This document shows, piece by piece, positions 7,237 to 43,029 of a DNA stretch of 43,029 nucleotides (the stretch's first letter is position 1; every line of letters begins with the position of its first letter). Location of the stretch: positions 1 to 43,029 of the forward strand of contig CAKUYM010000007.1 of NCBI GenBank assembly GCA_934716785.1. Reading direction: 5' to 3'. The notes beneath the pieces were generated by a model. It was given only the letters and a program-made list of their open reading frames with translations. It did no database searches and was not told the origin of the DNA. Source of the DNA: an uncultured Bacteroides sp. (GTDB taxonomy: Bacteria; Bacteroidota; Bacteroidia; Bacteroidales; Bacteroidaceae). Position numbers and translations under genes: made by a program.

Positions 7237-7929
7237 TTAGAAGAATTTGCTGATGCTTCCAATGACTTCAAAGACATTCATGATGCGGGATTTGTCGAAT
7301 TCCTGCTCGTCATAGTCCTCTGTATTGATGGGAATGAAGCGCAGCTTGTCCGGATCTGGCGACCTGCGCAAGATTTTAATGGTACGGATGGTGTCCAGTA
7401 CCACTGCATAGATTTCACCATACTGGATGTCGTTGAGTGTGCATTGGCGCAGGGCAATAATGTCTCCATGGTTTATTTTGGGCTCCATGGAGTGCCCGGT
7501 GACATTGCACCAGAGGCTGGCTTTCTCGAATCCTCTTATTACAATGTTGGTAGCGGGCATGTTTACCTGAGAGTTGAACACCTCATCGAATCCGCCGATA
7601 AAGTCCACATCGTAGTAAGGCGTGCCGATGGATGGACTCATGGATGTGGTAGGCATGAACGAAGAATCGGCTTCGTCTATTGTTTTAATGCCGTTCAAAT
7701 CATCTTTCAACATGCTCCCTGTACCAGTAAGAAGCCATTCGATGTTTACATCTGTAGCATAAGCGAGAAATCTTGCTATATTATCCTCGCTGATGCCATT
7801 ATTTTGTTGCAGAATCCCCCTTGTAACCCCCGATTCTTTATAAAATTCATAGGGTGTTACACCTTTTCTCTCTAAATAAAGCAAGATATTTTGCTTAATA
7901 GGCGATTTTTCTTGTTGTTTTTCTTTCAT
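7237..7929 (-). CDS. Phage repressor: HTH plus S24 peptidase (LexA/CI-like)
   Basis: This 230-residue protein has an N-terminal helix-turn-helix (about 10-68; KGVTPYEFYKESGVTRGIL) and a C-terminal S24 peptidase fold (about 105-225). The nucleophile is Ser147 in VTGHSMEPKINHGD and the likely general base is Lys185 in IRTIKILRR. Such repressors hold the prophage silent and are inactivated by RecA-stimulated self-cleavage after DNA damage. The usual Ala-Gly cleavage site is not obvious; IGG at about 111-113 is a possible place. The gene is transcribed against the early operon, and its promoter faces the early promoter across a palindrome (7960-7976) that is its probable operator. Position and direction match the Mu repressor, but the S24 domain resembles lambda-like repressors. 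Confidence 0.9.
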   Translation of the reverse strand: MKEKQQEKSPIKQNILLYLERKGVTPYEFYKESGVTRGILQQNNGISEDNIARFLAYATDVNIEWLLTGTGSMLKDDLNGIKTIDEADSSFMPTTSMSPSIGTPYYDVDFIGGFDEVFNSQVNMPATNIVIRGFEKASLWCNVTGHSMEPKINHGDIIALRQCTLNDIQYGEIYAVVLDTIRTIKILRRSPDPDKLRFIPINTEDYDEQEFDKSRIMNVFEVIGSISKFF

Positions 7930-8685: not shown

Positions 8686-9066
8686 ATGAGAAAGCAGATT
8701 TTGACCGATAACGAAACAAAGACCTTCCTAATGAAGACCTTTAAGTGTAGCCGTCAGGCTGTGTGGCAGGCGCTGAATTTTGTTCGTGATAGCGACCAGG
8801 CCCGCCGGATCCGCACCCTCGCCCTGAAACGAGGCGGCAAACTGACTGATGGTGAATTCATACCCAATTGTGAAACGACCTTTGAAGAGTGCGAGCATAC
8901 AATGACCTGCACATTCGGCCCCCGTGTAAAACTGGTAGCCCACCGGGAGACCAACGATGTGGACGTGTACGTGGACGGGAAACGGACCGAAACCTACCAA
9001 TGCGAGTTTGTATCAGACTTCATGCAGCTGCAGCACGAGACCCAACAGATGGCAGCCGCCTTATAA
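8686..9066 (+). CDS. Putative DNA-binding protein upstream of the transposase
   Basis: This 126-residue protein carries a helix-turn-helix-like segment near the N-terminus (about 12-50: MKTFKCSRQAVWQALNFVRD, then an Arg/Lys-rich helix ARRIRTLALKRGG). A beta-rich second half follows (VKLVAHRETNDVDVYVDG). It ends 11 bases before the transposase gene and is cotranscribed with it. A role as an early regulator similar to Mu Ner, or as a transposition accessory protein, would fit. The HTH call is by eye and the family is not identified. Confidence 0.6.
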   Translation: MRKQILTDNETKTFLMKTFKCSRQAVWQALNFVRDSDQARRIRTLALKRGGKLTDGEFIPNCETTFEECEHTMTCTFGPRVKLVAHRETNDVDVYVDGKRTETYQCEFVSDFMQLQHETQQMAAAL

Positions 9067-9077
9067 ACAGAAATGAA

Positions 9078-11183
9078 ATGGAGTATTATGGAAAGATATT
9101 GTGCATATCCTACAATGACCTGACCTACGACGACCGACCGGTGAAGGTGAACGGGAAGGCTGACTACAGCAGAAGCCGCACGCTGAAAGGCGTTCATCCT
9201 TCCACTCTTTCCGAAGAAGAACTTGCTCCCATCCTGTCGGTACCCAATTACAAGAAATTAGCGGCCAAGAAAGATATCAACGTAGTGCGACCCGGAAAGG
9301 GGCTTGGAAGTTATGCACTGGTAGAGATAGCGACCATGCCACTGCGGTTCCAGGAAAGGATAAAACTTAAATACGGAGACATGAAAGAGGACGTTATAAA
9401 AAACTGGCTCGGCAACCATTACCATATCGATGCGAAAGCCCGGGAATTTTACACCCGGTTCCGCTTTGACAACGGTGATGCCTTGCCCCCTGAACACATC
9501 CAGGAATATACGGTGAACGCTTCGGTAATTGAGGCTGTGATGCGTGCCATGGAGGATGCCACCTTTATGCGGAAGGCGATGAAGGCAGGGCCTGTGAACT
9601 GGGGGGAACTGGCAGGAGCCATCAGTTACTATCAAGCAGAGTTCGGTCACACCTTACCCGTGAGCTCGAACCGCTTCAAGAAGCGTGTGAATGATTTTAA
9701 AGCCAACGGCTATGAAAGCCTTATCAGCCGCAAGTTCATGAACCAGAACCGCCGGAAAGTGACCTACGATATTGAACGCCTACTGCTGAGCATCGATGCC
9801 CAACCAGAGCAGCCATTCAATACCACCGTGTGGGAGCAGTATAATATGTTTGTGCAAGGTGAGCTGGATCTGTACGACCCCGAGACCGGCGAGGTGCTGA
9901 ATCCGTCAGACTTTACCGACAAGGACGGCAATCCGGTGGTATTGAGCCCGGCCACGGTAGCCAATATCTTGAACAACCCCAAGAACAAGGCCCTTCGCGG
10001 AAAGCTGCACATGAGCCAGTGGGACTTCAACAATGCCTACCGTCCTTATCATCTGCGTAGCATCGGTGAATATGCCTTGAGTAAGGTTTCGCTTGACGAC
10101 CGCGACCTGCCGCGCCCGATGAAGGACGGAAACCGCGTGAAAGCTTATTATGCCTACGATGTGGTGAGCGGCGCTGTAGTGGGATATGCCTACAACCGGT
10201 ATAAGACTACCGAGTTGTTTTTGGACTGCATGCGGAATATGTTCCAGACTCTGGACCGGAACGGGATGTATATCCCAGCCGAGCTGGAAGTGGAGCACCA
10301 CCTGGTAAGCGACTTTGCCGACGGATTGATGCAGGCCGGTACCGTTTTCCCCTTGATTCGGTGGTGTAACCCCGGAAACTCCCGTGAAAAACGCGCCGAG
10401 CACAAGAACCGCGAAAAGAAGTACGGTGTGGAAAAGCGCACGCAGGTAGGCATTGGCCGATGGTATGCCAAACTGGAAGCCAACCGCCCGAAGGAAGAGA
10501 AGGTGTATGACGAAAAGAACAATACCTACAAGGTGAAGACCTACAGCTATGAGGAACTGATAGCTGATGATATACGTGCCATTGAGACCTTCAACGCGCA
10601 GCCTCACCCCAACCAGAAGCGCTATCCGGGCATGAGCCGATGGGATGTACTTTGCGCCCACCAGAACCCGAATCTTGCCCCTTGGGATAAGGCGGTTCTT
10701 TACCGATTCATCGGGCAGCATACCGAAACGACCATCAGACAGAACACCTACTGCACGGTGATGTATAACCAATACGGACTGCCCAGCCCGGAAATCATTG
10801 AAAAGCTGGAGCCGAGAAACTACAAGGTAGACGCCTATTATCTGCCCGATGCCGACGGAACCATCAGCGAGGTATATATATACCAGAACGGACGATATAT
10901 CGCCACCTGCAAGGCGGTAGCCCGCTACAATGAGAACACAGCCGAGCAGACCGAAGCCGACAAGGCAGCCTATACCGAACAGGCCAAGTATGTAGCCCAG
11001 TTTGACAAGATGATGAAGGACGGCAAGATTAAGCGTGTGGGCATCCTTGCCAAAGAGGAAGCGAAGCTGATAACAGAGGTACAGGCGGAAGCCGTCCCCC
11101 TTCTTACCCAAGCCGAGGAAGAAGATTACTCAGCCTATATGGACATCAGTGCCTTTGAGCATGATGCGGTAGCCAAGATATAA
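9078..11183 (+). CDS. MuA-like DDE transposase
   Basis: The ATG at 9078 gives 701 residues, close to MuA (663). An open frame extends upstream to 8889 but would run inside the previous gene, so the ATG 11 bases after that gene is chosen. The N-terminus (about 1-220) should hold the DNA-binding domains. The catalytic RNase H-like core is about 310-470: VSLDDRDLPRP (D340/D341) gives the first acid, VEHHLVSDFADG sits at the second position, and REKRAEHKNREKKYGVEKR (E441 or nearby) gives the last. A MuA-like beta-barrel and C-terminal tail follow, ending in an acidic and helical stretch. The enzyme joins phage ends to target DNA for integration and replicative transposition, with the MuB-like ATPase encoded next. 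The second catalytic residue appears to be Glu or Asp in a changed context. Confidence 0.88.
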   Translation: MEYYGKILCISYNDLTYDDRPVKVNGKADYSRSRTLKGVHPSTLSEEELAPILSVPNYKKLAAKKDINVVRPGKGLGSYALVEIATMPLRFQERIKLKYGDMKEDVIKNWLGNHYHIDAKAREFYTRFRFDNGDALPPEHIQEYTVNASVIEAVMRAMEDATFMRKAMKAGPVNWGELAGAISYYQAEFGHTLPVSSNRFKKRVNDFKANGYESLISRKFMNQNRRKVTYDIERLLLSIDAQPEQPFNTTVWEQYNMFVQGELDLYDPETGEVLNPSDFTDKDGNPVVLSPATVANILNNPKNKALRGKLHMSQWDFNNAYRPYHLRSIGEYALSKVSLDDRDLPRPMKDGNRVKAYYAYDVVSGAVVGYAYNRYKTTELFLDCMRNMFQTLDRNGMYIPAELEVEHHLVSDFADGLMQAGTVFPLIRWCNPGNSREKRAEHKNREKKYGVEKRTQVGIGRWYAKLEANRPKEEKVYDEKNNTYKVKTYSYEELIADDIRAIETFNAQPHPNQKRYPGMSRWDVLCAHQNPNLAPWDKAVLYRFIGQHTETTIRQNTYCTVMYNQYGLPSPEIIEKLEPRNYKVDAYYLPDADGTISEVYIYQNGRYIATCKAVARYNENTAEQTEADKAAYTEQAKYVAQFDKMMKDGKIKRVGILAKEEAKLITEVQAEAVPLLTQAEEEDYSAYMDISAFEHDAVAKI

Positions 11184-11219: not shown

Positions 11220-12101
11220 ATGGAAATAACCAATGAAGTAAAAGGACGGATTGTGGCAGCGATAGCCGCCGACCGTGAAAATTATCCCAGCGACAACCGC
11301 CATGCCACGGCACTGGGTATAGCCCCCAGCGTTTACAATACCATTAAGCGGGGCAATTATGAAAAGCAGGTGAGTGATGCCAACTGGGTAGGCATAGCCC
11401 GAAGACTGGGCGTGCAGCTGCGCATGGAAATGCCCTGGCTGGCAGCCCAAACCCCGACCTATGTGTTTGTGAGCAAGCAGCTGGAAGTGTGCCAGGGAAG
11501 CGGTCTGAGCGCCATTCTGTGCGATATGCCCAATATAGGCAAGACCTTTACAGCGAAAGCTTACGTGAAGCAGCACAAGCACGCCGTATATGTGGACTGC
11601 AGCCAGGTGAAGACCAAGTTGAAGCTGATACGCTACATTGCCAAGGAATTCGGCGTGACCAGCAACGGACGCTACAGCGACGTGTATGAGGACCTGGTAG
11701 CCTACCTGCGCACGATTGATACGCCCCTGGTTATTCTGGACGAAGCCGGCGACCTGCAGTATGAAGCTTTTCTGGAGTTGAAGGCGCTTTGGAACGCTAC
11801 GGAACGCTGCTGCGCCTGGTATATGATGGGTGCCGACGGATTGAAGGAGAAGATAAACCGCGCCATCGAAGGCAAGAAGGTGGGTTATACCGAAATGTTG
11901 AGCCGCTACGGTGACTCATACAGCAAGGTAACCCCGGACGATGCGCAGGAACGCGAAAAGTTTCTGAAGGCACAGGCTGCCATCGTGGCCAAAATCAATG
12001 CCCCGGACGGTGCCGATATAGCCAAGATAGTTCACAGTACAGGAGGCGGCTTGCGACGCGTATATACTGAAATTGAAAAATTAAGGAGGATGCAGGCATG
12101 A
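11220..12101 (+). CDS. MuB-like AAA+ ATPase, transposition target selection
   Basis: This 293-residue protein has an N-terminal HTH-like domain (about 1-70; ATALGIAPSVYNTIKRGNYE). An AAA+ domain follows, with a Walker A variant DMPNIGKTF at 102-110 and Walker B PLVILDEAGDL at 169-179. A C-terminal helical domain (about 225-293) includes STGGGLRRVYTEIEKL. MuB proteins form ATP-dependent filaments on DNA, bring target DNA to the transposase and keep the phage from inserting into itself. Its position directly after the transposase is the Mu order. Its stop overlaps the next start by four bases (ATGA), so the two are translationally coupled. Confidence 0.88.
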   Translation: MEITNEVKGRIVAAIAADRENYPSDNRHATALGIAPSVYNTIKRGNYEKQVSDANWVGIARRLGVQLRMEMPWLAAQTPTYVFVSKQLEVCQGSGLSAILCDMPNIGKTFTAKAYVKQHKHAVYVDCSQVKTKLKLIRYIAKEFGVTSNGRYSDVYEDLVAYLRTIDTPLVILDEAGDLQYEAFLELKALWNATERCCAWYMMGADGLKEKINRAIEGKKVGYTEMLSRYGDSYSKVTPDDAQEREKFLKAQAAIVAKINAPDGADIAKIVHSTGGGLRRVYTEIEKLRRMQA

Positions 12102-16505: not shown

Positions 16506-16597
16506 TATATTTGCAGCAGCTCCATAAGGAGTTAGCGTGTGCTGCGGCACGTCGCATCGCAGGGAAGTCTGTTTGCAGGCTTCCCTGTTGTCTTTTT
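16506..16597 (+). ncRNA. Candidate small RNA with promoter and terminator, opposite to the head operon
   Basis: In the 116-base gap between two minus-strand genes the plus strand carries TATATTTG (16506-16513), a perfect -7 box. Three hairpins follow: CTCC-ATAA-GGAG (16520-16531), GTGC-TGCG-GCAC (16539-16550) and CAGGGAAG (16560-16567) paired with CTTCCCTG (16580-16587). The last one is followed by TCTTTTT (16591-16597), as in an intrinsic terminator. An RNA of about 78 bases starting near 16520 is predicted. No well-placed -33 box is visible, and no open frame of useful length lies in it. Confidence 0.5.
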
Positions 16598-17945
16598 AGT
16601 AGTAGAACTTACCATCCTTATAGAACAACCTGATTTCCCCTTTTTCATAGATCCATACTTCATCTATGTTTTGATTAGGCAAATTACGTCTTGCCATGAT
16701 AGCCCTTCTGATAAAACGGTCGGAACATCCCTTTGTATTCTTGATTACAATTCTGGAAGATTGCTCTAACCCGTGGGAAATCATGCTTTTTACTTTTCTT
16801 TTGTTCCATGGCTTGATGAAGCCTTCAAATTCGTAAAACAAGCCATCCACTTCAAAATCCGGGCATTTTCTGTAATATCTGGTATCTATCAAATTTGCGT
16901 AGATACGTTGGTAATCATCCGACAGATAGTGCAAGCGTGGTGTCATTTTGACTTGATGCCCCATTCTTGCCAATTGGAGGCAGATACGTTTCATATCCTT
17001 GTAGTCGGTCTTGTCCTTATCCACCTTCGGATGTACATAGAGTACACCGCCGTTGGAGAATGATTTTTCAAGTTTAAACCCGTTTTGCGCCATCCGTTCC
17101 ATACATGCCTTGATGTATGGGCAGTCGTAGCAATCCTTTGCCCGATTACTGAAGATGTGTTTCAGCCGGTCCTTGAAGCCCGGTTTATAGAAAGCACAGT
17201 GCCTGCAGTCGTTCGGGAAATAGGGATGGGAATCGGAAAAGAGGATGCCGTCCGTTCCCGGATTGTTATCCAGCCCCGGCTGCGGTTTACTGTTATCGTC
17301 GTCGTCCGGCAGTTGCGTTGGTTCCTCGTCAGTTGCCGTGAGGTCGCACTTGCAGTTCCATCGGTCGCCCGGCCGGTGTTTGCTCCAGAACGGGTCGTCG
17401 ATGGGCCGTATGGTGTTCCAGAACGGCCGATGGTCAGCCCCCGGGTGCAGCGATGTGGACGGCATCCATTTGAGGTTTGGCAAGACATCGCGTTCGCGTA
17501 GGAACTGCTGCCAGTCTGCCGCCTGATGAGCCCTAAGTACTGCCGTGTCATATTCAGTCTGCAGCCAGTGCCGAACCTGGTGGGATGCGATGGGTGTGAC
17601 CTCCTGCACCCATTTCTCGAATGGCTTTAGAGTGCCGTTAGAATCGAATAATAACCGTGCCATATCGCGCTGCATGCGGTGAACCTTGAATGCCGCAAAG
17701 ACCTCGTTGTTGGTTTGCAGCTGCTGCAGGAAATCGTCTACTTGCTCCACTTCAGACTGTGCAATCCCATCGGCGGCAGCATCATTCAGTATGCGGCAGA
17801 TTTCGTGAAATAGATTCGGCTCGATTTCGCCCTCCACATCTATTTTCTGACTGTAGATGCGCTGCAGTGCCTTGGCCAACACATCGCTGCTGAAACTGAA
17901 CGAAGTCTGTACCTCTTCCCCTTTGTTTTGGTAGAGGTCGTTCAT
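16596..17945 (-). CDS. Mu gpF-like minor head protein fused to a nuclease-like C-terminal domain
   Basis: The start is the ATG at 17945, which overlaps the portal stop (TAATG); a longer frame from 18002 is less likely. The 449 residues comprise a Mu F domain (about 85-205; LHPGADHRPFWNTIRPIDD and RPGDRWNCKCDLTATDEE). An acidic linker (206-232) and a cysteine-rich part (C247, C250, C272, C275, C281), possibly metal-binding, follow. The C-terminal domain (about 295-449) has PDFEVDGLFYEFEGF at 362-376, in the style of CdiA-CT/PBECR-type toxin nucleases attached to phage head proteins. gpF is injected or held at the head portal, so the tail domain may enter the recipient cell. Whether it is active cannot be told. 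Confidence 0.85.
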   Translation of the reverse strand: MNDLYQNKGEEVQTSFSFSSDVLAKALQRIYSQKIDVEGEIEPNLFHEICRILNDAAADGIAQSEVEQVDDFLQQLQTNNEVFAAFKVHRMQRDMARLLFDSNGTLKPFEKWVQEVTPIASHQVRHWLQTEYDTAVLRAHQAADWQQFLRERDVLPNLKWMPSTSLHPGADHRPFWNTIRPIDDPFWSKHRPGDRWNCKCDLTATDEEPTQLPDDDDNSKPQPGLDNNPGTDGILFSDSHPYFPNDCRHCAFYKPGFKDRLKHIFSNRAKDCYDCPYIKACMERMAQNGFKLEKSFSNGGVLYVHPKVDKDKTDYKDMKRICLQLARMGHQVKMTPRLHYLSDDYQRIYANLIDTRYYRKCPDFEVDGLFYEFEGFIKPWNKRKVKSMISHGLEQSSRIVIKNTKGCSDRFIRRAIMARRNLPNQNIDEVWIYEKGEIRLFYKDGKFYY

Positions 17946-19297
17946 TACCAATCTAAAGCTGCCCCGGAGGCCGGGGCTTTCACGAAAAAACCTTTCAGCC
18001 AATTCTGGAAGTTCTTTTTCTGTTGTGGTGTAGGTTCTTTATCCTGTTCCTTATCTACTGGTTCCTGTTCCTTCTTCGGGGTTGGAATCAGGGCAGCCTG
18101 TGTAGCCTCCCTTTGTTCAGCCTTCAGCTGCTCGTAGTTGGCCGGTTTGTCGATGCCGAATTCCTCATAGAGATAGTCGTCGTCGATGGGGATGTTGAAG
18201 TTCTTCTTTAGCTGCGTAAGAATGGATATTTTGGTGCCTGCATCCGTTTCCTTCGGTTCAGGGTAGCAGAATGTACCCCCTTTGGTGTTGATGCCCATGT
18301 GCAGCAGAATGTCCGTCATGTCATAATTAAGCACGTTGAGTATATATTTTCGGTCGGCTTCCAGCACCTTGTCCTCTACCTTCTGATGAACCGTACCCAA
18401 GGCCTGAGTGCCTTTTTCGGATGATTCGGTAGTTAGCGTATTGCCCAGTATCAGTTTGGATATTTCGTTGTTGCACCGTTCGCAGAGGCGTTCATAGACA
18501 TCGGCGGACCCCGTTTTGTTGCCGGCTTCCGTGAGCTTGAGTTCCGTGTCCTTGGCGTGGAAGAACTGCGCCAGGCTTCCGGCATTTGCAGCATCATCCA
18601 TAGCCCGCTGGCGTGACTCGTCGTCGTCGGAATCATAAATATATTCCTGGATAGGCATGCCGAATACCTCGGAGAACTGTGCCCAGTCGCCCGTGGTATT
18701 GCGTTTGTAGATAATCCAAGGTGCAGCCTTTGCCAACAGCCCCAAATCGGATGGAGAGCCCACAAAAAGCAAGTCGGTATATTCATCCCAGGAATGGCCG
18801 GTGATGTCAGTCTGGTGACGCAAGATGAGTTTCCTGATTGGATCTACATGCTTACGTGGTACAAGGTCGTAATCCACCCACTGCTGCAGCTTGTAGAACT
18901 GACAGAGCGAGAAGCCCCAGAACTTTGCATCGAGGATGTCACCTACCAGCCGGTTGAACCATGGCGACTGTATCTGCTCGTTGATTTTATCGTCGGGTTT
19001 TCCGTCCACCCGGAACTCCATGTTGGAGCACAGCACGGCATTCTTTCGTTTTTCGAGAACACAGGAAAGGTGGGTATCCATCAGAATGTCCTCGTAGAGG
19101 TCATAGAGTTTGTAACGTCGCGAGAAATCGACGTTTTCGGCCGCCTTGATGGCCGCCATGTAGTCGGCAATGTCCAGCCCGAAGCGTTTGGGCTGGGTGA
19201 GCACAATCACATTCGGTTTCTTCTGTCCCGGCAAAGCGAAGTTTCCCCCAACGGTGATGATGCCGGCTTTGCCAGTTTTTCTGTTTTTCTGTTTCAT
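17945..19297 (-). CDS. Portal protein, DUF935 / Mu gp29 family
   Basis: This 450-residue protein shows the gp29-like order: an N-terminal basic part (MKQKNRKTGKAGIITVGGNF), DIADYMAAIKAAENVDFSRR, and the LYDLYEDILMDTHLSCVLEK segment typical of DUF935. The core has the FWGFSLCQFYKL and WIIYKRNTTGDWAQFSEVFG segments. The C-terminus is Gln/Lys-rich (KKEQEPVDKEQDKEPTPQQK). Portals form the 12-fold ring through which DNA enters and leaves the head. Its stop overlaps the gpF start. Confidence 0.9.
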   Translation of the reverse strand: MKQKNRKTGKAGIITVGGNFALPGQKKPNVIVLTQPKRFGLDIADYMAAIKAAENVDFSRRYKLYDLYEDILMDTHLSCVLEKRKNAVLCSNMEFRVDGKPDDKINEQIQSPWFNRLVGDILDAKFWGFSLCQFYKLQQWVDYDLVPRKHVDPIRKLILRHQTDITGHSWDEYTDLLFVGSPSDLGLLAKAAPWIIYKRNTTGDWAQFSEVFGMPIQEYIYDSDDDESRQRAMDDAANAGSLAQFFHAKDTELKLTEAGNKTGSADVYERLCERCNNEISKLILGNTLTTESSEKGTQALGTVHQKVEDKVLEADRKYILNVLNYDMTDILLHMGINTKGGTFCYPEPKETDAGTKISILTQLKKNFNIPIDDDYLYEEFGIDKPANYEQLKAEQREATQAALIPTPKKEQEPVDKEQDKEPTPQQKKNFQNWLKGFFVKAPASGAALDW

Positions 19298-35979: not shown

Positions 35980-38900
35980 ATGGCAAAGAAGGTATATGAT
36001 CAGGACGGGCTGGATATGCAGCATACGAACTGGAGCGGTGACGCCGCAACCGGCGGGTTGCCCGTAAGCGGTCGCCTGGTGGAAAATTATGTGAAGAGCA
36101 TTGACGAGAAAGCCACCCCTACCGAGGAACTGGTAAGCGGGGAAACGAAACCTCCTACATCCGGAACGGTGTTCGATGCGATGGTGGGTACGGTGACGGA
36201 CGTGGATGTGCAGGACAGCGAAGACGGCACCCAGTACGTGATGACCGTGAAGCAGAAGGATAACCAGGGCGGCGAGAGCTCGAAGGAGGTGCGCTTTTCC
36301 AAGTACACGGACGACGACAAGGTGGTGGTGAACATTGACCTGACGGACAGCGGCGGCGCGGGACTTCCCTCACAGCAGTATCTGGCACTGGGAAGCGGCT
36401 TTGTGGTGAAATACTCGGTGGGCGTGGGTACTGCCGGCGGAGGCACGGTGGACGGCTACAGCGACCTGAAGGCCCGGGTGGTAGTGAAGCGCGGTTCGAC
36501 CGTTATCAGTGAGTTCCGGGATGCGGAGTTTGCGGGTGTGACAGCGGGACAGAGCTATACCTTTGACGCTTCGCCTTACCTGAAGGATGCTACCGCTTAT
36601 ACCGTACAGGTGGAAGCACAAGCCACCTATCAGGGCGGCACGCTGATGAAGACGGCTACGGCTAAGGTGACCATGGTGGCCATGACGCTGGAAACTACTT
36701 ACTCTGTGGGCAACGGACTGGCTGACGGCGGGTACCGGAACGACGTGAACATTCCCTTTACAGCCAAGGGCACGAGCGGCGAGAAGAACATCTACTACCG
36801 CGTGAACGGCGGCCAGGCCTTTACCCTCGGCCTTTCTGCCGGCAGCGGCGTGCAGCAGAAGAACGTGACCATCCCGCTGACGCAGATGCAGGAAGGTACG
36901 AACGTGGTGGAGGCCTACGCGCAGCATGAGAACTCAGGTGTGGTGAGCCAGGTGCATTACATTACGCTGCTGAAGGCAGGCGGCGGGGTTACAGCGTATG
37001 CCGGCATGATGTTCAACCACCGGGCGGCAGGGTTCCAGCGCGACTGGAAACGCCCGGTTCTGGAGGCGGAGCAGTTCACGGCGTGGAGTTTTTCGTATGC
37101 CGGCTATGACCGCGATGCGTACACGGCCCGGGTGAAAGTGACCAATCAAGGCAGTGTGGTGAAGGAAGACCTGTTGCAGCGCGGCGAGACCGGCAGCTAC
37201 GGGCGGACGAACGTGAACGTGGAACCGCTGGACTACCGAGTGTCATGCGGTGATGCCGTGATTGAGGTGGAGGTGAACACCGCATCGCACCCCGACATTG
37301 AAGCTACGTTGGCACCGGATGCGGTGTGTACGTTTGACGCTTTCGGACGAAGCAACACGGAGAATAATCCGGCAAGCTGGGTGAGCGGTGACAAACGCAT
37401 GGAGTTCCGGGATGTGCTGTGGAGCGTGAACGAATATGGTGCAGGAAGCGGCTGGCACCAGGACCGCCTGCTGCTGGCCGGCTGTGCAGGCATGACCCTG
37501 ACCGCCGACGGAGGGTACAGACCATTCAATGAGGCGGACAAGTCGGAGGGGTTTGCCATCCGTGCTGTGGGCATGACGCTGGAGATAGAATACAGCACAG
37601 CGAACGTGACGGACACGAATGCCGAGCTGATTACCTGCCTGGGGCAGCTGGATAACGGGAACCGGTACGGGCTGATTGTGACCCCGGAAGAGGCCAAGTT
37701 CCTGACCGGTGTGGTGACCGAGGCGATGGATGCCGGACAGGTGCTGCGCTATGAGGACTCGGTGGGTACGAAGTTCCAGCCGGGCACGAACATCCGCATT
37801 ACCTACGTGTTCTACCCGAACGTGCAGACGAACGAACAGCGCACGCTGATCGGCTTCTATGTGAACGGGGAGGAAAGTGCAGCCTCGAAGTGGCTGGACA
37901 AGGTGAACTTCAACATCCAGAGCCAGCTGGAGTTCAAGTCAACGGGGGCCGACCTGAACGTGAAGAGCGTGCGAATATATAACAAGGCGCTGACCTCGGA
38001 CGAAGTATTGAACAACTACATTGTGGACCGTAACCATCTGGAAGATTTCAACGGGGAACCAGGCGTGCGATCGCTGGATGAGGACAACCGCGTGCTGAAC
38101 GAGGGGGACACGGTGAGCATGGAGAAGCTGATGGAACTGATGAAGAAGCGCCGGAACTCGATTCTGGTACTGATAGGTACGGGCAGTGTGGGCAGCGAAA
38201 CTCCGAGTGGCAGCGACACACTGAACGTGGTGGATGCACTGGCGCAGCTTAACGACAAGAAGGCAAACAAACTGGTAAGGGAGGTCCGTTTCTATAACGG
38301 AGAGGACAGAACGCTTGATTTTATCCTTTACAACGTATATGTACGCATACAAGGTACTTCTTCTGTGAACTATGCGAGGAAGAACTTCCGTTTCTACTTA
38401 CAGAAGACTGCAAGCGGATGGGTGATTACATTGAGCTACGGGGAGATTGACGGGAACGGAAGGCAGGCGAATCCGGTGGTAACTACCGGCAAGAAGAATC
38501 TATTCAAGTTGCGCAAAAATTCCGTAGGCGCGAAGCTGGCATGTGCCAAATGTGACTATTCGGACTCGTCTATGACCACAAATACCGGTGGTGCGAAGCT
38601 TATCAATGACGGACTGAAAGAGATGGGGCTGCTTACGCCTGCACAGCGTTACGCCAAAGACCATAATTTGGATGATGATTTCCGTTCGGCTATCGACGGT
38701 TTGCCGTGCGACCTGTTTGTAGCGAAGAGTGCCGACGAGGACCTGGTATATTACGGACAGTACAACCTTAACAACGAGAAGAGCGACAGCTACCCTATCT
38801 TCGGGCAGGATGAGACCATAGGTGAAGAAAAATGGGGAGAGGGTGAAACGCTGAATTATCTTGAAGCTGACGAGCAAGGACATAAGCAGTACCTGCCCGT

Positions 38901-41900
38901 CTGCTTTGAGACGCTGAACAACTCGAATCCCTGCTGCCTGTTCCAATGGTTGCCGAGCACCGAAGCCGACCACATGGACTTTATGGATAATAACTTTGAC
39001 GGAGGATTGGAATTCAATCATCCGAAAGACACTTTTTGGTCGGATGGAGGAGGTGATGAGGCCGAAGAGCCCAATTTGAAAGACCACCTCGGTACCGGCG
39101 ACAAGTACGACAAGATGTACAAGGCTACCGACCGCATGATGAGTTTTGTTTACCGGTGCGTGAAGGAAACGCCTGCAGGCAGGAACATGGTTTACAGCAC
39201 GGAATCCCATTCGTTCGAGGGGGTGGACTATGAGGACGACGGCGACAAGTTCCCTACCGCCAAATGGCAGAGCGATACGTTCAAGAAAGAGGCCGGGAAG
39301 TATTTTGACCTTCCCCACCTGATATCATACTATCTGTACATGCAGTTCAATCTCGGCGTGGATCAGCTTGCGAAAAACATGCTAATTCGTACCTGGGACG
39401 GCGTGAAATGGCTAATTGACTATTATGACGGCGACTGCCAGCTCGGCTCGGATAATAAGTCGTTCCTGACAGGCAAGTACGATGATAACCGTCAGACGAA
39501 GCGTGACGGGGCTTATGTGATGCAGGGACACAACTCGTGGTTGTGGAACCTCATCGTGGCTAACTGCTGGGATATGATTGTGGAAATCATGGTGAGCGGA
39601 TGGAACGGTGGCGCAAGCTTTATGAGTGCCTTCAGTGCCCAGAAAGCCATTGACCACTTTGATACTGAACAGATGAAGAAGTGGTGCTCCCGCCTCTATA
39701 ACAAATCTGGCATCTTTAAATACATTTACCCGTTCCTGAATGAAATGCCAGTGGGTGCGGACGGCGCGAAACAGACGTATCCGCAGATTTACGGTTTGAA
39801 GGGTTCGCTGAAAGCGCACCGGAACTACTTCATCCAACGCCGATACGACCTGAAACAGGTGGAATACGGCTATGTATCTACGCTGGGTGCCCAGTTTTAC
39901 CAGAGTACGGCATCGCTGGATAAGGCATACAAACTGAAGCCGATGCAGTTTGCTCTTACCATTCCGTACCGTGTGCAGCTATCTACCAGCAACGGTGTAC
40001 AGACCGACAGCGGCGTGGTGGATGCGGACGTGCTCCATTCTCTGCAGCTGACCCGTTCGTTCGGCGAAAATGACCCTCTGAAGATTATCGGTGCAGCCAA
40101 AATAAAGGAACTGGTGTGGCATGAGGATGCGTTTGCCATCGGCTTCAATTTCGGTTTGCTGACCTCACTGGTAAAACTGGACATGAGCGTGGAGAAAGCC
40201 AGCGGGTACCGGAACGGTTCGTTCATGGCCTCGACCAACGGGATGCTGCTTCTGGAAGATGTGAACATGCGGAACAACCAGCTGGCCCGGAACGGGGACA
40301 ACGGGAATGTGGCAACCTTGGACCTGAGCTGGCAGGGGCGACTGAAGAAACTGGATGTGAGAGGTACGGGGCTGACTAGGGTGAAGCTGGCTACCGGTGC
40401 GCCCGTTGTGCAGTTATGCCTGCCGGATACGATTGAGGAACTGTTTCTGGAATATCTGACCAAGCTGCAGGACAGCGGCCTGATACTGGAAGGCATAAAC
40501 AACGTGCGGGGCTACCGCTATACCAACTGCCCCGGCATCGATGGGTTTGCCATGCTGGAACGCCTGCACCAAGCCAAACTGAACGGCAGCGGCAAGCTGG
40601 AACGCTTTGTGCTGGAGATAGACCGGGAAGACGACGGAACCCTGCTGAAGAAGTATTTTGACTACGGAACGTACACGCAGACGGGTGCTGTGGATGACCG
40701 GCATTCGGGACTTAGGGGTAAGTTGACACTGACGAAATATTTGCCTGACGAGGAACTGAGCAAATACCGCGAACGCTATCCGGAACTGACCATCAAGCAG
40801 CCGCCCTATACGATGATTGAGTTTGACGACAGTGTGGCGGATGATGCAAACGTTTCTAATTTAGACAATAAAACAGGGTATAAGTTTGGTAATCAATATG
40901 TGATGAGTGGACACATAAAAGCTATCATGTCCAAGCGCCATCGCGTATTGGCCAAGGTGACCAAGATGCCTACGAGCCGGAAGGTGGAGATAGCCGGACA
41001 GCAGGTGGAAGTGAACAACCCGGACGGGGAAATGACCTATTTCCCCCTGCATGACGAAAATTCGAATTTCTATGCCGACGCGGAGGATATGAACGGCTGC
41101 ACTGTGGCAAAACTGGACGGCAGCGAGGGGGACTTGATGATGTATGAGCCGTTTTACTGGAGCAAGGGTATCAATGACTATCTGACCGGCAAGAAGTACG
41201 CCTGCTACAGTAGCTACCCGGAGGATGAAATGCCTCCGGTGCCGGAAGCGACGGTACTGACGCTGGACGCTATAAAGGAGACGCAGGGCGGCTGGCTGGG
41301 TGAACGCAAAATAATGAGCGGCAAGCCTACGCTGAAGGAATCCTATACGACGGACAAGGGGTATTCGGTATGTAAGGTGGACGTATACGGTTACAGGCGT
41401 GTTCGTTTTCCGAGCGTTCCCGGTACGGGACTTATAGGCAGTGTGTTTGTAGATGCTGACGGAAACATTCTGAAGAGCGTCGTAGTGCCGACCATAGGCT
41501 TGAGGTTTGAAGCCGGCATGTATCTGATAGCGGACGTTCCGGAACGTGCAACGGCCCTGCATTTCTCCATCCTGAACACGGCGGAGTTTGACTGCGTGGT
41601 GCTATCAAATTCGGACAAGATTGAAGATATGGAACCGGAATGGGTGGCGAATGATGAACATCTGTGTGGCGTTGTGGGCAGTTCTGTGGTGGGCAGCAAG
41701 CTACGTGCCTGCATAACCGGTGGCTCGACTACGGGAAGCATGACCTGGACGGACTTTCATTATTACAGCCAGCAGCGGGGCATGCAGCAGATAGACGCGC
41801 TGATGCACAGCCGCATCGCGAACTTGAGTTATGCCCGTTACGGGCGCAGGGACATGCAGGAACAGTGTGGCGCCGGACAGCATAACAACAACCGAACAAC

Positions 41901-42513
41901 AGGCGGAACGGCCGAACATGGGATGACAGACACCATAGGCTACGATGAAGCGTATGCCATCAACAACAAAATCACGAATTCGCTGATTGAAGATCTGGTG
42001 CACCAGTATGCCTGGTATAAGAGCCGGGACGAATACGGGCAGGAGACCGTGGTGCAGGTGAACAATATCTGCTGCCTGGGCTACGAGGACATCTACGGCA
42101 ACAAGTATGACATGATGGACGGCGTGGATTTGCCGAACGACAGCGGCAACGTGGGCAAATGGCGCATCTGGATGCCGGACGGCACGGTGCGCTGGGTGCA
42201 GGGAAAAAAGGACAGCGGACATTGGATAACAGGCGTGGCGCACGGCAAGTATATGGACATGGTTCCGGTGGGTAATCTGAACGGTTCATCTTCTACCTAC
42301 TATACCGACAAATATTGGATAAGCACCGCCACTGTCCGTGTGGTCTATCGCGGGTACAGCCATGCGGTTGCGAGTGGCGGTGTGTCGTATGCGGATGCGA
42401 ATAACGATGCTTCGGGTACGTATACGAGTGTCGGCTCGCGTCTGGCCTTCCGCGGCAAAAACGTGAGGGCGCAGAGCGTGGCAGCGTATAAGGCGATACG
42501 CGGGGTGGCGTAA
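35980..42513 (+). CDS. DGR target protein: giant tail/receptor-binding protein with variable C-type-lectin-like C-terminus
   Basis: This 2177-residue protein is the last gene of the tail operon. After an N-terminal attachment part (MAKKVYDQDGLDMQHTNWSG) come several beta-sandwich parts. A LamG/concanavalin-like one lies at about 520-690 (LNVKSVRIYNKALTSDEVLN). A large region around 840-1320 includes LIRTWDGVKWLIDYYDGDCQ. A leucine-rich-like part lies at about 1400-1530 (VATLDLSWQGRLKKLDVRGT). The last 150 or so residues (DGTVRWVQGKKDSGHWITGV; SRLAFRGKNVRAQS) fit the C-type lectin fold of DGR targets. Residues 2119-2146 are coded by the variable repeat. Asn in the template has become Ser, His, Val, Ser, Tyr, Asp or Gly, so the binding surface differs between phage descendants. 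Confidence 0.92.
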   Translation: MAKKVYDQDGLDMQHTNWSGDAATGGLPVSGRLVENYVKSIDEKATPTEELVSGETKPPTSGTVFDAMVGTVTDVDVQDSEDGTQYVMTVKQKDNQGGESSKEVRFSKYTDDDKVVVNIDLTDSGGAGLPSQQYLALGSGFVVKYSVGVGTAGGGTVDGYSDLKARVVVKRGSTVISEFRDAEFAGVTAGQSYTFDASPYLKDATAYTVQVEAQATYQGGTLMKTATAKVTMVAMTLETTYSVGNGLADGGYRNDVNIPFTAKGTSGEKNIYYRVNGGQAFTLGLSAGSGVQQKNVTIPLTQMQEGTNVVEAYAQHENSGVVSQVHYITLLKAGGGVTAYAGMMFNHRAAGFQRDWKRPVLEAEQFTAWSFSYAGYDRDAYTARVKVTNQGSVVKEDLLQRGETGSYGRTNVNVEPLDYRVSCGDAVIEVEVNTASHPDIEATLAPDAVCTFDAFGRSNTENNPASWVSGDKRMEFRDVLWSVNEYGAGSGWHQDRLLLAGCAGMTLTADGGYRPFNEADKSEGFAIRAVGMTLEIEYSTANVTDTNAELITCLGQLDNGNRYGLIVTPEEAKFLTGVVTEAMDAGQVLRYEDSVGTKFQPGTNIRITYVFYPNVQTNEQRTLIGFYVNGEESAASKWLDKVNFNIQSQLEFKSTGADLNVKSVRIYNKALTSDEVLNNYIVDRNHLEDFNGEPGVRSLDEDNRVLNEGDTVSMEKLMELMKKRRNSILVLIGTGSVGSETPSGSDTLNVVDALAQLNDKKANKLVREVRFYNGEDRTLDFILYNVYVRIQGTSSVNYARKNFRFYLQKTASGWVITLSYGEIDGNGRQANPVVTTGKKNLFKLRKNSVGAKLACAKCDYSDSSMTTNTGGAKLINDGLKEMGLLTPAQRYAKDHNLDDDFRSAIDGLPCDLFVAKSADEDLVYYGQYNLNNEKSDSYPIFGQDETIGEEKWGEGETLNYLEADEQGHKQYLPVCFETLNNSNPCCLFQWLPSTEADHMDFMDNNFDGGLEFNHPKDTFWSDGGGDEAEEPNLKDHLGTGDKYDKMYKATDRMMSFVYRCVKETPAGRNMVYSTESHSFEGVDYEDDGDKFPTAKWQSDTFKKEAGKYFDLPHLISYYLYMQFNLGVDQLAKNMLIRTWDGVKWLIDYYDGDCQLGSDNKSFLTGKYDDNRQTKRDGAYVMQGHNSWLWNLIVANCWDMIVEIMVSGWNGGASFMSAFSAQKAIDHFDTEQMKKWCSRLYNKSGIFKYIYPFLNEMPVGADGAKQTYPQIYGLKGSLKAHRNYFIQRRYDLKQVEYGYVSTLGAQFYQSTASLDKAYKLKPMQFALTIPYRVQLSTSNGVQTDSGVVDADVLHSLQLTRSFGENDPLKIIGAAKIKELVWHEDAFAIGFNFGLLTSLVKLDMSVEKASGYRNGSFMASTNGMLLLEDVNMRNNQLARNGDNGNVATLDLSWQGRLKKLDVRGTGLTRVKLATGAPVVQLCLPDTIEELFLEYLTKLQDSGLILEGINNVRGYRYTNCPGIDGFAMLERLHQAKLNGSGKLERFVLEIDREDDGTLLKKYFDYGTYTQTGAVDDRHSGLRGKLTLTKYLPDEELSKYRERYPELTIKQPPYTMIEFDDSVADDANVSNLDNKTGYKFGNQYVMSGHIKAIMSKRHRVLAKVTKMPTSRKVEIAGQQVEVNNPDGEMTYFPLHDENSNFYADAEDMNGCTVAKLDGSEGDLMMYEPFYWSKGINDYLTGKKYACYSSYPEDEMPPVPEATVLTLDAIKETQGGWLGERKIMSGKPTLKESYTTDKGYSVCKVDVYGYRRVRFPSVPGTGLIGSVFVDADGNILKSVVVPTIGLRFEAGMYLIADVPERATALHFSILNTAEFDCVVLSNSDKIEDMEPEWVANDEHLCGVVGSSVVGSKLRACITGGSTTGSMTWTDFHYYSQQRGMQQIDALMHSRIANLSYARYGRRDMQEQCGAGQHNNNRTTGGTAEHGMTDTIGYDEAYAINNKITNSLIEDLVHQYAWYKSRDEYGQETVVQVNNICCLGYEDIYGNKYDMMDGVDLPNDSGNVGKWRIWMPDGTVRWVQGKKDSGHWITGVAHGKYMDMVPVGNLNGSSSTYYTDKYWISTATVRVVYRGYSHAVASGGVSYADANNDASGTYTSVGSRLAFRGKNVRAQSVAAYKAIRGVA
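42334..42417 (+). repeat. DGR variable repeat (VR), part matched in this window
   Basis: It is 75/84 identical to the template repeat at 42946-43029. The nine changed VR positions are 42359, 42361, 42367, 42368, 42374, 42388, 42394, 42415 and 42416; each faces an A in the template (six to G, two to T, one to C). The VR probably goes on to about the end of the gene, where the GC-rich string GTCGGCTCGCGTCTGG follows, but the template beyond this point is outside the window. Confidence 0.95.
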
Positions 42514-42556
42514 GCGCAAAGCGCCAAAGCGTGGAGCGAAGCGACTAAAACGAAAG

Positions 42557-42587
42557 AACTGGATTCGGGAGCCATCCGAATCCAGTT
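42557..42587 (+). other. Hairpin/cruciform downstream of the VR gene
   Basis: AACTGGATTCGG (42557-42568) and CCGAATCCAGTT (42576-42587) are perfect 12-base complements with loop GAGCCAT, 43 bases after the target stop. There is no T run, so it is not a simple terminator. DGRs often carry a DNA hairpin just downstream of the VR that helps retrohoming, and this is a candidate. Confidence 0.5.
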
Positions 42588-42603
42588 TAAAAGGTATTCA
42601 AAT

Positions 42604-42628
42604 ACCGGCGAAGCCGGTCGAATTTTTT
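42604..42628 (+). terminator. Terminator of the tail operon
   Basis: ACCGGC (42604-42609), loop GAA, GCCGGT (42613-42618), four bases, then six T (42623-42628). It should end the structural transcript after the DGR target gene. Confidence 0.7.
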
Positions 42629-42650
42629 AAGAATTAAATACATCATCATT

Positions 42651-42884
42651 ATGGGAACAGTTATTGATTTTTTGAGAGAGAGTAACCGATGCAAGCATCT
42701 GTTAGGCGGATTCCTTGTAGGTTTGTTGGCAATAAATCCAGGCGTATCACTGTATGCAAGCGTTGTTGCGGCTTCATGCTTGGAGTTTAAGGATAAGCAG
42801 TATGGAGGCTGTTGGGACTGGATAGATTGGGGATTAACCGTGTTGGGCGGTGCTTTTGCTGCTTTGTTATGGTTATTCTTCTGA
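42651..42884 (+). CDS. Small membrane protein between target gene and template repeat
   Basis: A 77-residue protein with two membrane helices: LLGGFLVGLLAINPGVSLYA and the C-terminal WGLTVLGGAFAALLWLFF. A polar link with CLEFKDKQYGGCWDWIDW lies between them. It is not an Avd-type accessory protein (those are soluble helical bundles of about 130 residues). The gene is AT-richer than the tail genes. Being next to the DGR it might affect lysis, superinfection or host membrane; no evidence favours one. Confidence 0.7.
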   Translation: MGTVIDFLRESNRCKHLLGGFLVGLLAINPGVSLYASVVAASCLEFKDKQYGGCWDWIDWGLTVLGGAFAALLWLFF

Positions 42885-42915
42885 GCATTATAGATTTCTT
42901 TTGCCTTGAAATAAG

Positions 42916-42923
42916 TACCTTTG
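42916..42923 (+). promoter_or_regulatory. Candidate promoter (-7 box) of the template RNA
   Basis: TACCTTTG matches TAnnTTTG and lies 22 bases before the start of VR/TR homology, so an RNA starting near 42930 would contain the template repeat. No clear -33 box is visible at the proper distance. Confidence 0.45.
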
Positions 42924-42945
42924 TAATTGGTAGAGCTTCCCGATA

Positions 42946-43029
42946 GTCCGTGTGGTCTATCGCGGGTACAACAATGCGAATGCGAATGGCGGTGTGTCGA
43001 ATGCGAATGCGAATAACGATGCTTCGAAT
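42946..43029 (+). repeat. DGR template repeat (TR), cut by the window edge
   Basis: It matches the VR at 42334-42417 except at nine A positions. Read in the VR frame the template is rich in AAY (Asn) codons: nine in the last 21 codons. In DGRs these are the codons that give the widest range of substitutions when A is randomised. Twenty-one A lie in the 84 bases. The remainder of TR and the reverse transcriptase gene should follow to the right. Confidence 0.95.

What the first reader, a model, noticed from the sequence alone, without database searches (positions are those of the whole stretch)
42334..43029. Diversity-generating retroelement: variable and template repeats with A-only differences
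The 84 aligned bases (VR 42334-42417, TR 42946-43029) differ at nine positions. All nine are A in TR, while 0 of 63 non-A positions differ. VR lies in the C-terminal lectin-like end of a 2177-residue tail protein, and the TR is full of AAY codons. Seven of nine template Asn codons are changed in the VR (to Ser, His, Val, Ser, Tyr, Asp, Gly). The phage can therefore retarget its host-binding tip. Established knowledge: DGRs as in Bordetella phage BPP-1, and DGR-bearing Mu-like Bacteroides phages (hankyphage).
Basis: partly seen in the sequence, partly recalled or inferred. Interest (0 to 1): 0.95.

Follow-up and report, generated by a model that had tools for sequence, protein, structure and literature searches.

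The report
Tail-tip mutators shared between prophages
The window ends inside the template of a phage hypermutation device whose target copy, in a very long gene, differs from it only at adenines; in related prophages that share one gut bacterium, the target of one phage carries the fixed letters of another phage's template, so such phages likely rewrite each other's predicted host-binding tips.

Summary
Confirmed: window 42334-42417 (VR, in the 2177-residue gene 35980-42513) and 42946-43029 (TR) differ at 9 of 84 positions; all nine are A in the TR, 0 of 63 non-A differ; no other such site in the window. The window stops 84 bases into a TR that is 112 bases in relatives, so its reverse transcriptase (RT) is out of view; 22 of 23 related loci hold the RT, the exception having no TR. 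By itself: a hankyphage-like DGR, a new member of a known kind.

Following the family gave more. Of 40 adjacent VR/TR pairs, 32 VRs fit their own TR (at most one non-A substitution, gaps ignored) and 8 do not. In Mediterranea massiliensis two prophages carry each other's marks; Parabacteroides massiliensis shows the same, with a scaffolding caveat; Phocaeicola plebeius shows it one way. Best reading: DGRs of co-resident prophages write each other's tail genes in trans. Trans-writing between bacterial DGR loci is published (PMC10907252); between prophages I saw none in six paper searches. The window's own VR fits its own visible TR.

The parts
42334..42445 (+). Variable repeat (VR), residues about 2119-2155 of the target protein; 84 bases can be aligned to the visible TR, the rest by relatives
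42946..43029 (+). Template repeat (TR), first 84 of about 112 bases; cut by the end of the window
35980..42513 (+). DGR target gene, 2177 aa, predicted tail protein; phrog_14959 (unknown function); related to the hankyphage p00 target
42439..42455 (+). VR 3' border CGTCTGGCCTTCCGCGG: its first part is shared with TRs, the rest marks VRs; stands where the initiation-of-mutagenic-homing site would be (role inferred)
42556..42588 (+). Hairpin, 14-bp stem (one or more G-T pairs allowed), 5-base loop, about 110 bases past the VR; similar position with other stem sequences in many relatives; terminator or homing element, undecided
42651..42884 (+). 77-aa small protein between VR and TR (phrog_38535, unknown function); relatives lie directly upstream of the TR in both DGR layouts
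7237..7929 (-). CI-like repressor at the left end of the prophage
   Evidence: phrog_4, phrog_6201
8889..11183 (+). Mu-A-like transposase
   Evidence: phrog_310
11220..12101 (+). AAA protein in the Mu-B position
   Evidence: PF13401
16596..19297 (-). Mu F-like minor head protein (16596-18002) and Mu portal (17945-19297)
   Evidence: PF04233, PF06074

Best explanation
The window holds the target end of a diversity-generating retroelement in a Mu-like prophage: a VR at the end of a 2177-residue gene and, 612 bases on, an A-rich TR that the record cuts short, with the RT and Avd genes likely following just outside. How it would work: RT and Avd copy the TR RNA with errors at adenines and the cDNA replaces the VR, so mostly Asn codons of the predicted tail tip are randomised (established for BPP-1 and, at population level, for hankyphage; inferred here). 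Shown at family level: the outer ends of the repeat are the same in all 28 TR variants seen (CCGTGTGGT at the left, CGTCT at the right), and in cells with two such prophages the VR of one often carries every non-A marker base of the other's TR together with changes at that TR's adenines. Inferred from this: the templates are interchangeable, and co-resident DGRs write each other's target genes in trans. For the window itself the visible TR is a sufficient source of its VR.
For: DGR in the window. RT after the TR in relatives: 22 of 23 loci. Own-TR rule: 32 of 40 adjacent pairs (some pairs are near-duplicate strains, e.g. L064 and G041 have the same VR, and three of the 32 fit only with 5-11 single-base gaps, L006 and two of G263). 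Cross-written VRs with the source TR in the same genome or contig, non-A mismatches to own against co-resident TR: Mediterranea massiliensis (G003) C21 6 against 0 of 81, and C24 4 against 0 of 82; Parabacteroides massiliensis (G001) type III 13 against 0 of 81, type II 10 against 0 of 84; Phocaeicola plebeius (G006) C17 5 against 0 of 65 (86 bases only, the rest is N); IMG 2921101260 13 against 0 of 81. Fraction of TR copies from other genomes that would fit as well: 0.036-0.164 each, product 1.2e-7 (rough; cases are not fully independent). The same target gene has different writers in different strains: the type II VR is T02-type in IMG 2923973727, T00-type in G003, T04-type in G001, each TR being held by that strain. 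In G003 the 6.7-kb target region is 99.7% identical to those of G005 and G007, whose VRs are T00-type. RTs of the six crossed prophages checked have no stop and keep YCDD. At the left border the crossed VRs share 9-11 exact bases; passages of PMC3240598 state that 8 or more suffice to complete homing in BPP-1.
Against: The window's RT is not in view. Cross-writing is read from assembled genomes, not seen happening. In G001 and 2921101260 the tail genes share an exact stretch of over 400 bases upstream of the VR and scaffolds break or may be joined there, so which VR belongs to the type II prophage is uncertain there. Four of the eight misfitting adjacent VRs (L005, L008, L058, L075) have no known co-resident source. 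G002 and G263 hold two TR kinds (T00 and T01) and show no crossing; G008 shows none either. Full reciprocity in two genomes is also what a swap would give.
Confidence: 0.8

Rival explanations
1. VRs were exchanged between prophages by homologous recombination or gene conversion between tail genes, not by trans-acting reverse transcription.
For: The prophages share long related tail genes; in P. massiliensis two of them share 444 exact bases; the exchange is two-way in G003 and, with the caveat, in G001.
Against: The exchanged tract sits inside the TR-VR homology: both flanks stay type-specific, with only 9-11 exact bases shared at the left border and 20-21 at the right. In G001 the two T02-type VRs (C3 type III and C4) have different adenine changes, so neither is a plain copy of the other. 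Each crossed VR has 5-13 changes at the adenines of the foreign TR and none elsewhere.
Confidence: 0.12
2. The crossed VRs are assembly errors that swap similar segments between prophages.
For: Reciprocity is what a swapped assembly would give; several of these are draft genomes, with N gaps near two of the sites; G669 may be a chimera.
Against: In G003 the two tail genes share no exact stretch above 52 bases and only 11 at the left VR border, too short for usual long k-mers. The T04-adjacent VR carries T02 marks in three separate assemblies with three different adenine patterns.
Confidence: 0.06
3. The mismatch is history: the prophage's TR-RT cassette was replaced, or the VR was written in an earlier host, and the TR in the same cell is coincidence.
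For: L005, L008, L058 and L075 have foreign-type VRs without a known co-resident source; cassettes have moved between two genome positions in this family.
Against: In the six cases with a second TR at hand the matching TR is in the same genome or contig, with 0 mismatches in each. TRs and their flanks are constant across species.
Confidence: 0.1

Closest known systems
Hankyphage p00 (Bacteroides phage p00, BK010646; PMC6199706, PMC12135933)
   Same: Mu-like temperate Bacteroidales phage; VR at the end of a tail gene of over 2000 residues, small ORF, TR, then RT, small Avd-like gene, thyA, DNA methyltransferase
   Different: Target gene only about 43% identical over its length, nearer at the VR end (78%); TR differs at 19 of 108 positions from T00; the window's RT is unseen
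BPP-1 DGR of Bordetella phage (PMC3240598, passages seen)
   Same: Adenine-specific TR to VR copying into the 3' end of a tail gene; short 5' identity suffices
   Different: BPP-1-type hairpins have 4-base GRNA loops 4-34 bases from the VR; the hairpin here has a 5-base loop about 110 bases away
Trans-acting chromosomal DGRs of Thiohalocapsa PB-PSB1 (PMC10907252, section read)
   Same: VRs that fit another locus's TR at every non-adenine site in the same genome, read as trans activity
   Different: There, DGR loci of one bacterial chromosome, several of them incomplete; here separate prophages each with TR and intact RT, in one genome in both directions
Remote second VRs in gut prophages (PMC12629997, passages seen)
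   Same: A VR far from the RT cassette
   Different: There a second VR within one phage; type II phages here have their tail-gene VR 25.8-26.4 kb from the TR, on the other strand

Membership tests
Diversity-generating retroelement | TR and VR that differ at TR adenines only | tested here: met
   9 of 9 differences at A, 0 of 63 non-A
Diversity-generating retroelement | DGR-type RT next to the TR | not testable with these tools
   The window ends in the TR and no genome is held for it; no RT in the window; met in relatives, 22 of 23 loci, YCDD in the 10 RTs checked
Diversity-generating retroelement | Accessory protein Avd | not testable with these tools
   Beyond the window; an Avd relative follows the RT in 18 of the 23 loci L001-L023, the other five being L010 (no RT) and four that end inside the RT
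Diversity-generating retroelement | VR in the 3' end of a target gene with a C-type-lectin-like fold | tested here: inconclusive
   VR position met; fold not shown: no Pfam hit, pLDDT 31
Hankyphage-like (Mu-like) phages | Mu-type transposase, Mu portal/F, repressor, tail gene with VR, TR at the right end | tested here: met
BPP-1-type target hairpin | GC-rich stem with 4-base GRNA loop, 4-34 bases after the VR | tested here: not met
   Nearest strong hairpin about 110 bases after the VR with a 5-base loop; feature as given in passages of PMC3240598
Trans-writing between DGRs | VR fits a non-adjacent TR of the same genome at every non-A base | tested here: met
   Six VRs in three genomes and one contig; for the window itself not testable, no genome held

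The most novel reading that the evidence does not exclude
Gut prophages share a mutator commons: because TR and VR ends are interchangeable, any resident DGR can rewrite the tail tip of every co-resident relative, and a VR once overwritten by a foreign TR is likely captured as that TR's client, so prophages both parasitise and diversify one another, up to complete mutual exchange as in Mediterranea massiliensis.
Probability: 0.4. Interest if true: 0.82.

Novelty: new variant of a known kind. Interest (0 to 1): 0.63.

Why it matters
If prophages write each other's receptor-binding tips, host range in a polylysogen is not a property of one phage but of the set of prophages in the cell, and DGR surveys that pair each VR with its nearest TR will misassign targets. 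It also gives a cheap test: marker bases in VRs tell which template wrote last, so writer identity can be read from existing long-read genomes and cultures.

Tried and rejected
Rejected: chance origin of the repeat; a second VR inside the window; the idea that type III prophages need a helper because their own RT is broken (RT without stops, YCDD). The TG fragment that begins at residue 1435 in P. massiliensis is a scaffold break (101 N in the C3 copy, contig start in the C4 copy), not a deletion. Led nowhere: extending the window to the right (no genome held; of its own flank only L006 shares the 38 bases before the TR); fold prediction of the C-terminal 338 residues, solved-structure search (one irrelevant weak hit), Pfam. 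A second T21-like string in L191 is in a different setting: its nearby RT is only 35% identical and no CCGTGTGG border was found. The genome searches scored only a few candidates per genome in the larger sets (2, up to 5 in 46 and 75, up to 7 in 43) and hold one genome per species, so multi-prophage strains are undercounted; the type II VR of G001 was missed by the T00 query and found with T04. Searches added no new polylysogen.

Labels T00-T27 and types I-III are mine. Recalled, not from a call: the general DGR mechanism and the term IMH as applied here.

Full report
OBSERVATION. Leaving the TR adenines free, the window contains only the VR and the TR themselves, and the next best ungapped match has 40 identities of 84. 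The window ends inside the TR.

SETTING. Left of about 7.2 kb lie bacterial genes (sigma factor, FecR, TonB-dependent receptor). From the repressor (7237-7929, minus) to the window's end is a Mu-like prophage: transposase, AAA protein in the MuB position, Mu F, Mu portal, tail genes, the 2177-residue target, a 77-aa small protein, TR. The nearest named kin are hankyphages: p00 has VR, small ORF, TR and RT in that order. In the 23 loci first fetched, the RT is found in 22; the one without (L010) has a VR but no TR. The closest locus over the VR-TR stretch, L006, has its RT about 210 bases past the TR. So the window's DGR is very likely complete beyond its edge, but this is inferred.

WHICH TEMPLATE WROTE THE WINDOW? 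The visible 84 bases fit. The 108-base VR core fits T21 with 0 non-A mismatches and T00 with 1; the unseen TR end will decide.

TWO LAYOUTS. In type I (window, p00) the VR lies a few hundred bases before the TR. In type II the TR-RT-Avd-thyA-methyltransferase block sits mid-genome behind a different head module (terminase, portal and F at 22-32% identity to the window's, while the tail genes reach 50-95%), and the tail-gene VR is 25.8-26.4 kb away on the other strand (G001, G003, G008, G590). Type III (TR variant T04) is laid out like type I.

READING THE WRITER. Non-A bases that differ between TRs mark which template wrote a VR. Over 28 TR variants, 40 adjacent VR/TR pairs were tested: 32 VRs fit the adjacent TR with at most one non-A substitution (gaps ignored), 8 do not: L005, L008, L058, L067, L075, G001 C3, G003 C21, G006 C17. 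Of five remote type II pairs, G008, G590 and IMG 2923973727 (whose VR and TR are on different contigs) fit their own TR; G003 C24 and G001 do not. A natural control: the TR T07 has lost three adenines, and both VRs beside it hold the TR's G at all three places.

CROSSED PAIRS. In Mediterranea massiliensis (G003) the type I VR fits the type II TR (0 non-A mismatches of 81; own 6) and the type II VR fits the type I TR (0 of 82; own 4). In Parabacteroides massiliensis (G001) the type III VR fits the type II TR (0 of 81; own 13), and a type II tail gene carries a VR that fits the type III TR (0 of 84; own 10); a third tail-gene fragment on contig C4 fits the type II TR with 1 mismatch. In Phocaeicola plebeius (G006) the C17 VR, readable for 86 bases, fits the C4 TR (0 of 65; own 5), while the C4 VR is its own. 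On IMG contig 2921101260 the VR beside T04 fits T02 of the same contig (0 of 81; own 13). TR copies of other genomes would fit as well in 3.6-16.4% of cases each; the product is 1.2e-7, rough because 2921101260 is a close kin of G001 and the two VRs of one genome are not independent.

WHY TRANS-WRITING. The RTs of the prophages involved have no stop and keep YCDD. The repeat ends are invariant across all 28 TRs. Crossed tracts keep type-specific flanks, with 9 or 11 shared exact bases at the left border and 20 or 21 at the right; BPP-1 work states that 8 or more bases suffice to complete homing (PMC3240598, passages). In G003 the target region is otherwise 99.7% identical to type I copies in G005 and G007, and the two tail genes share no exact stretch above 52 bases, which argues against an assembly swap. 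In G001 and 2921101260 the tail genes share over 400 exact bases upstream of the VR, so which VR goes with the type II body is uncertain there; the adjacency of a T02-marked VR to T04 is contiguous in three assemblies with three different adenine patterns.

AGAINST. G002 and G263 hold T00 and T01 without crossing, and G008 holds T03 and T14 without crossing (the VR of its T14 cassette was not found). Crossed TR pairs differ at 7, 13 and 14 of 108 positions, uncrossed at 19 and 25: perhaps a similarity limit, but five pairs are few. Four misfitting VRs lack a known co-resident source. No reads were seen.

KNOWN OR NEW. DGRs in hankyphages are known, and their activity in culture has been shown (PMC12135933, section 6). 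Trans-writing between DGR loci of one bacterial chromosome was inferred in Thiohalocapsa (PMC10907252, section 8). Six paper searches and passages of nine papers showed no report of prophages writing each other's VRs; the library holds open-licence papers only and no bioRxiv preprints. The window by itself is an ordinary new member; the family behaviour is a new variant.

Noticed in passing
L109, L121, L078 (G263), L006, L069: VR copies lack about one base at many AAY codons (97-107 instead of 108 bases) while non-A bases fit the template; probably consensus calling over a live mixture of VR variants.
   Followed up: partly
L029, L030 (T07 template, G004 and G006): The template itself has three A-to-G changes (TCG AGT ACG GGT), and the VRs beside it are fixed at G there, as adenine-only mutagenesis predicts.
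   Followed up: yes
L009:3184-3293 (minus-strand template): This TR has an internal deletion of roughly 48 bases while its VR is full length, so the VR was written before the deletion or by another TR.
   Followed up: no
G669 (L181-L183), about 17.3-19.9 kb: A type II prophage body is joined to a type III right end, giving one tail gene and two DGR cassettes; either a real hybrid phage or an assembly chimera at a stretch of over 400 bases identical between the two.
   Followed up: partly
G003:C24, G008:C29, G590:C3, G001:C3: Type II phages carry an unrelated-looking head module together with the DGR cassette mid-genome, as if both were swapped in as one block.
   Followed up: partly
window:42556-42588: Hairpin after the target gene whose stem sequence differs between phage types but is kept in place; absent or weak in several relatives.
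   Followed up: partly
L002, L007, L019 and the window: Several contigs begin or end at or near the TR, as expected if short-read assemblies break at the VR/TR repeat.
   Followed up: no
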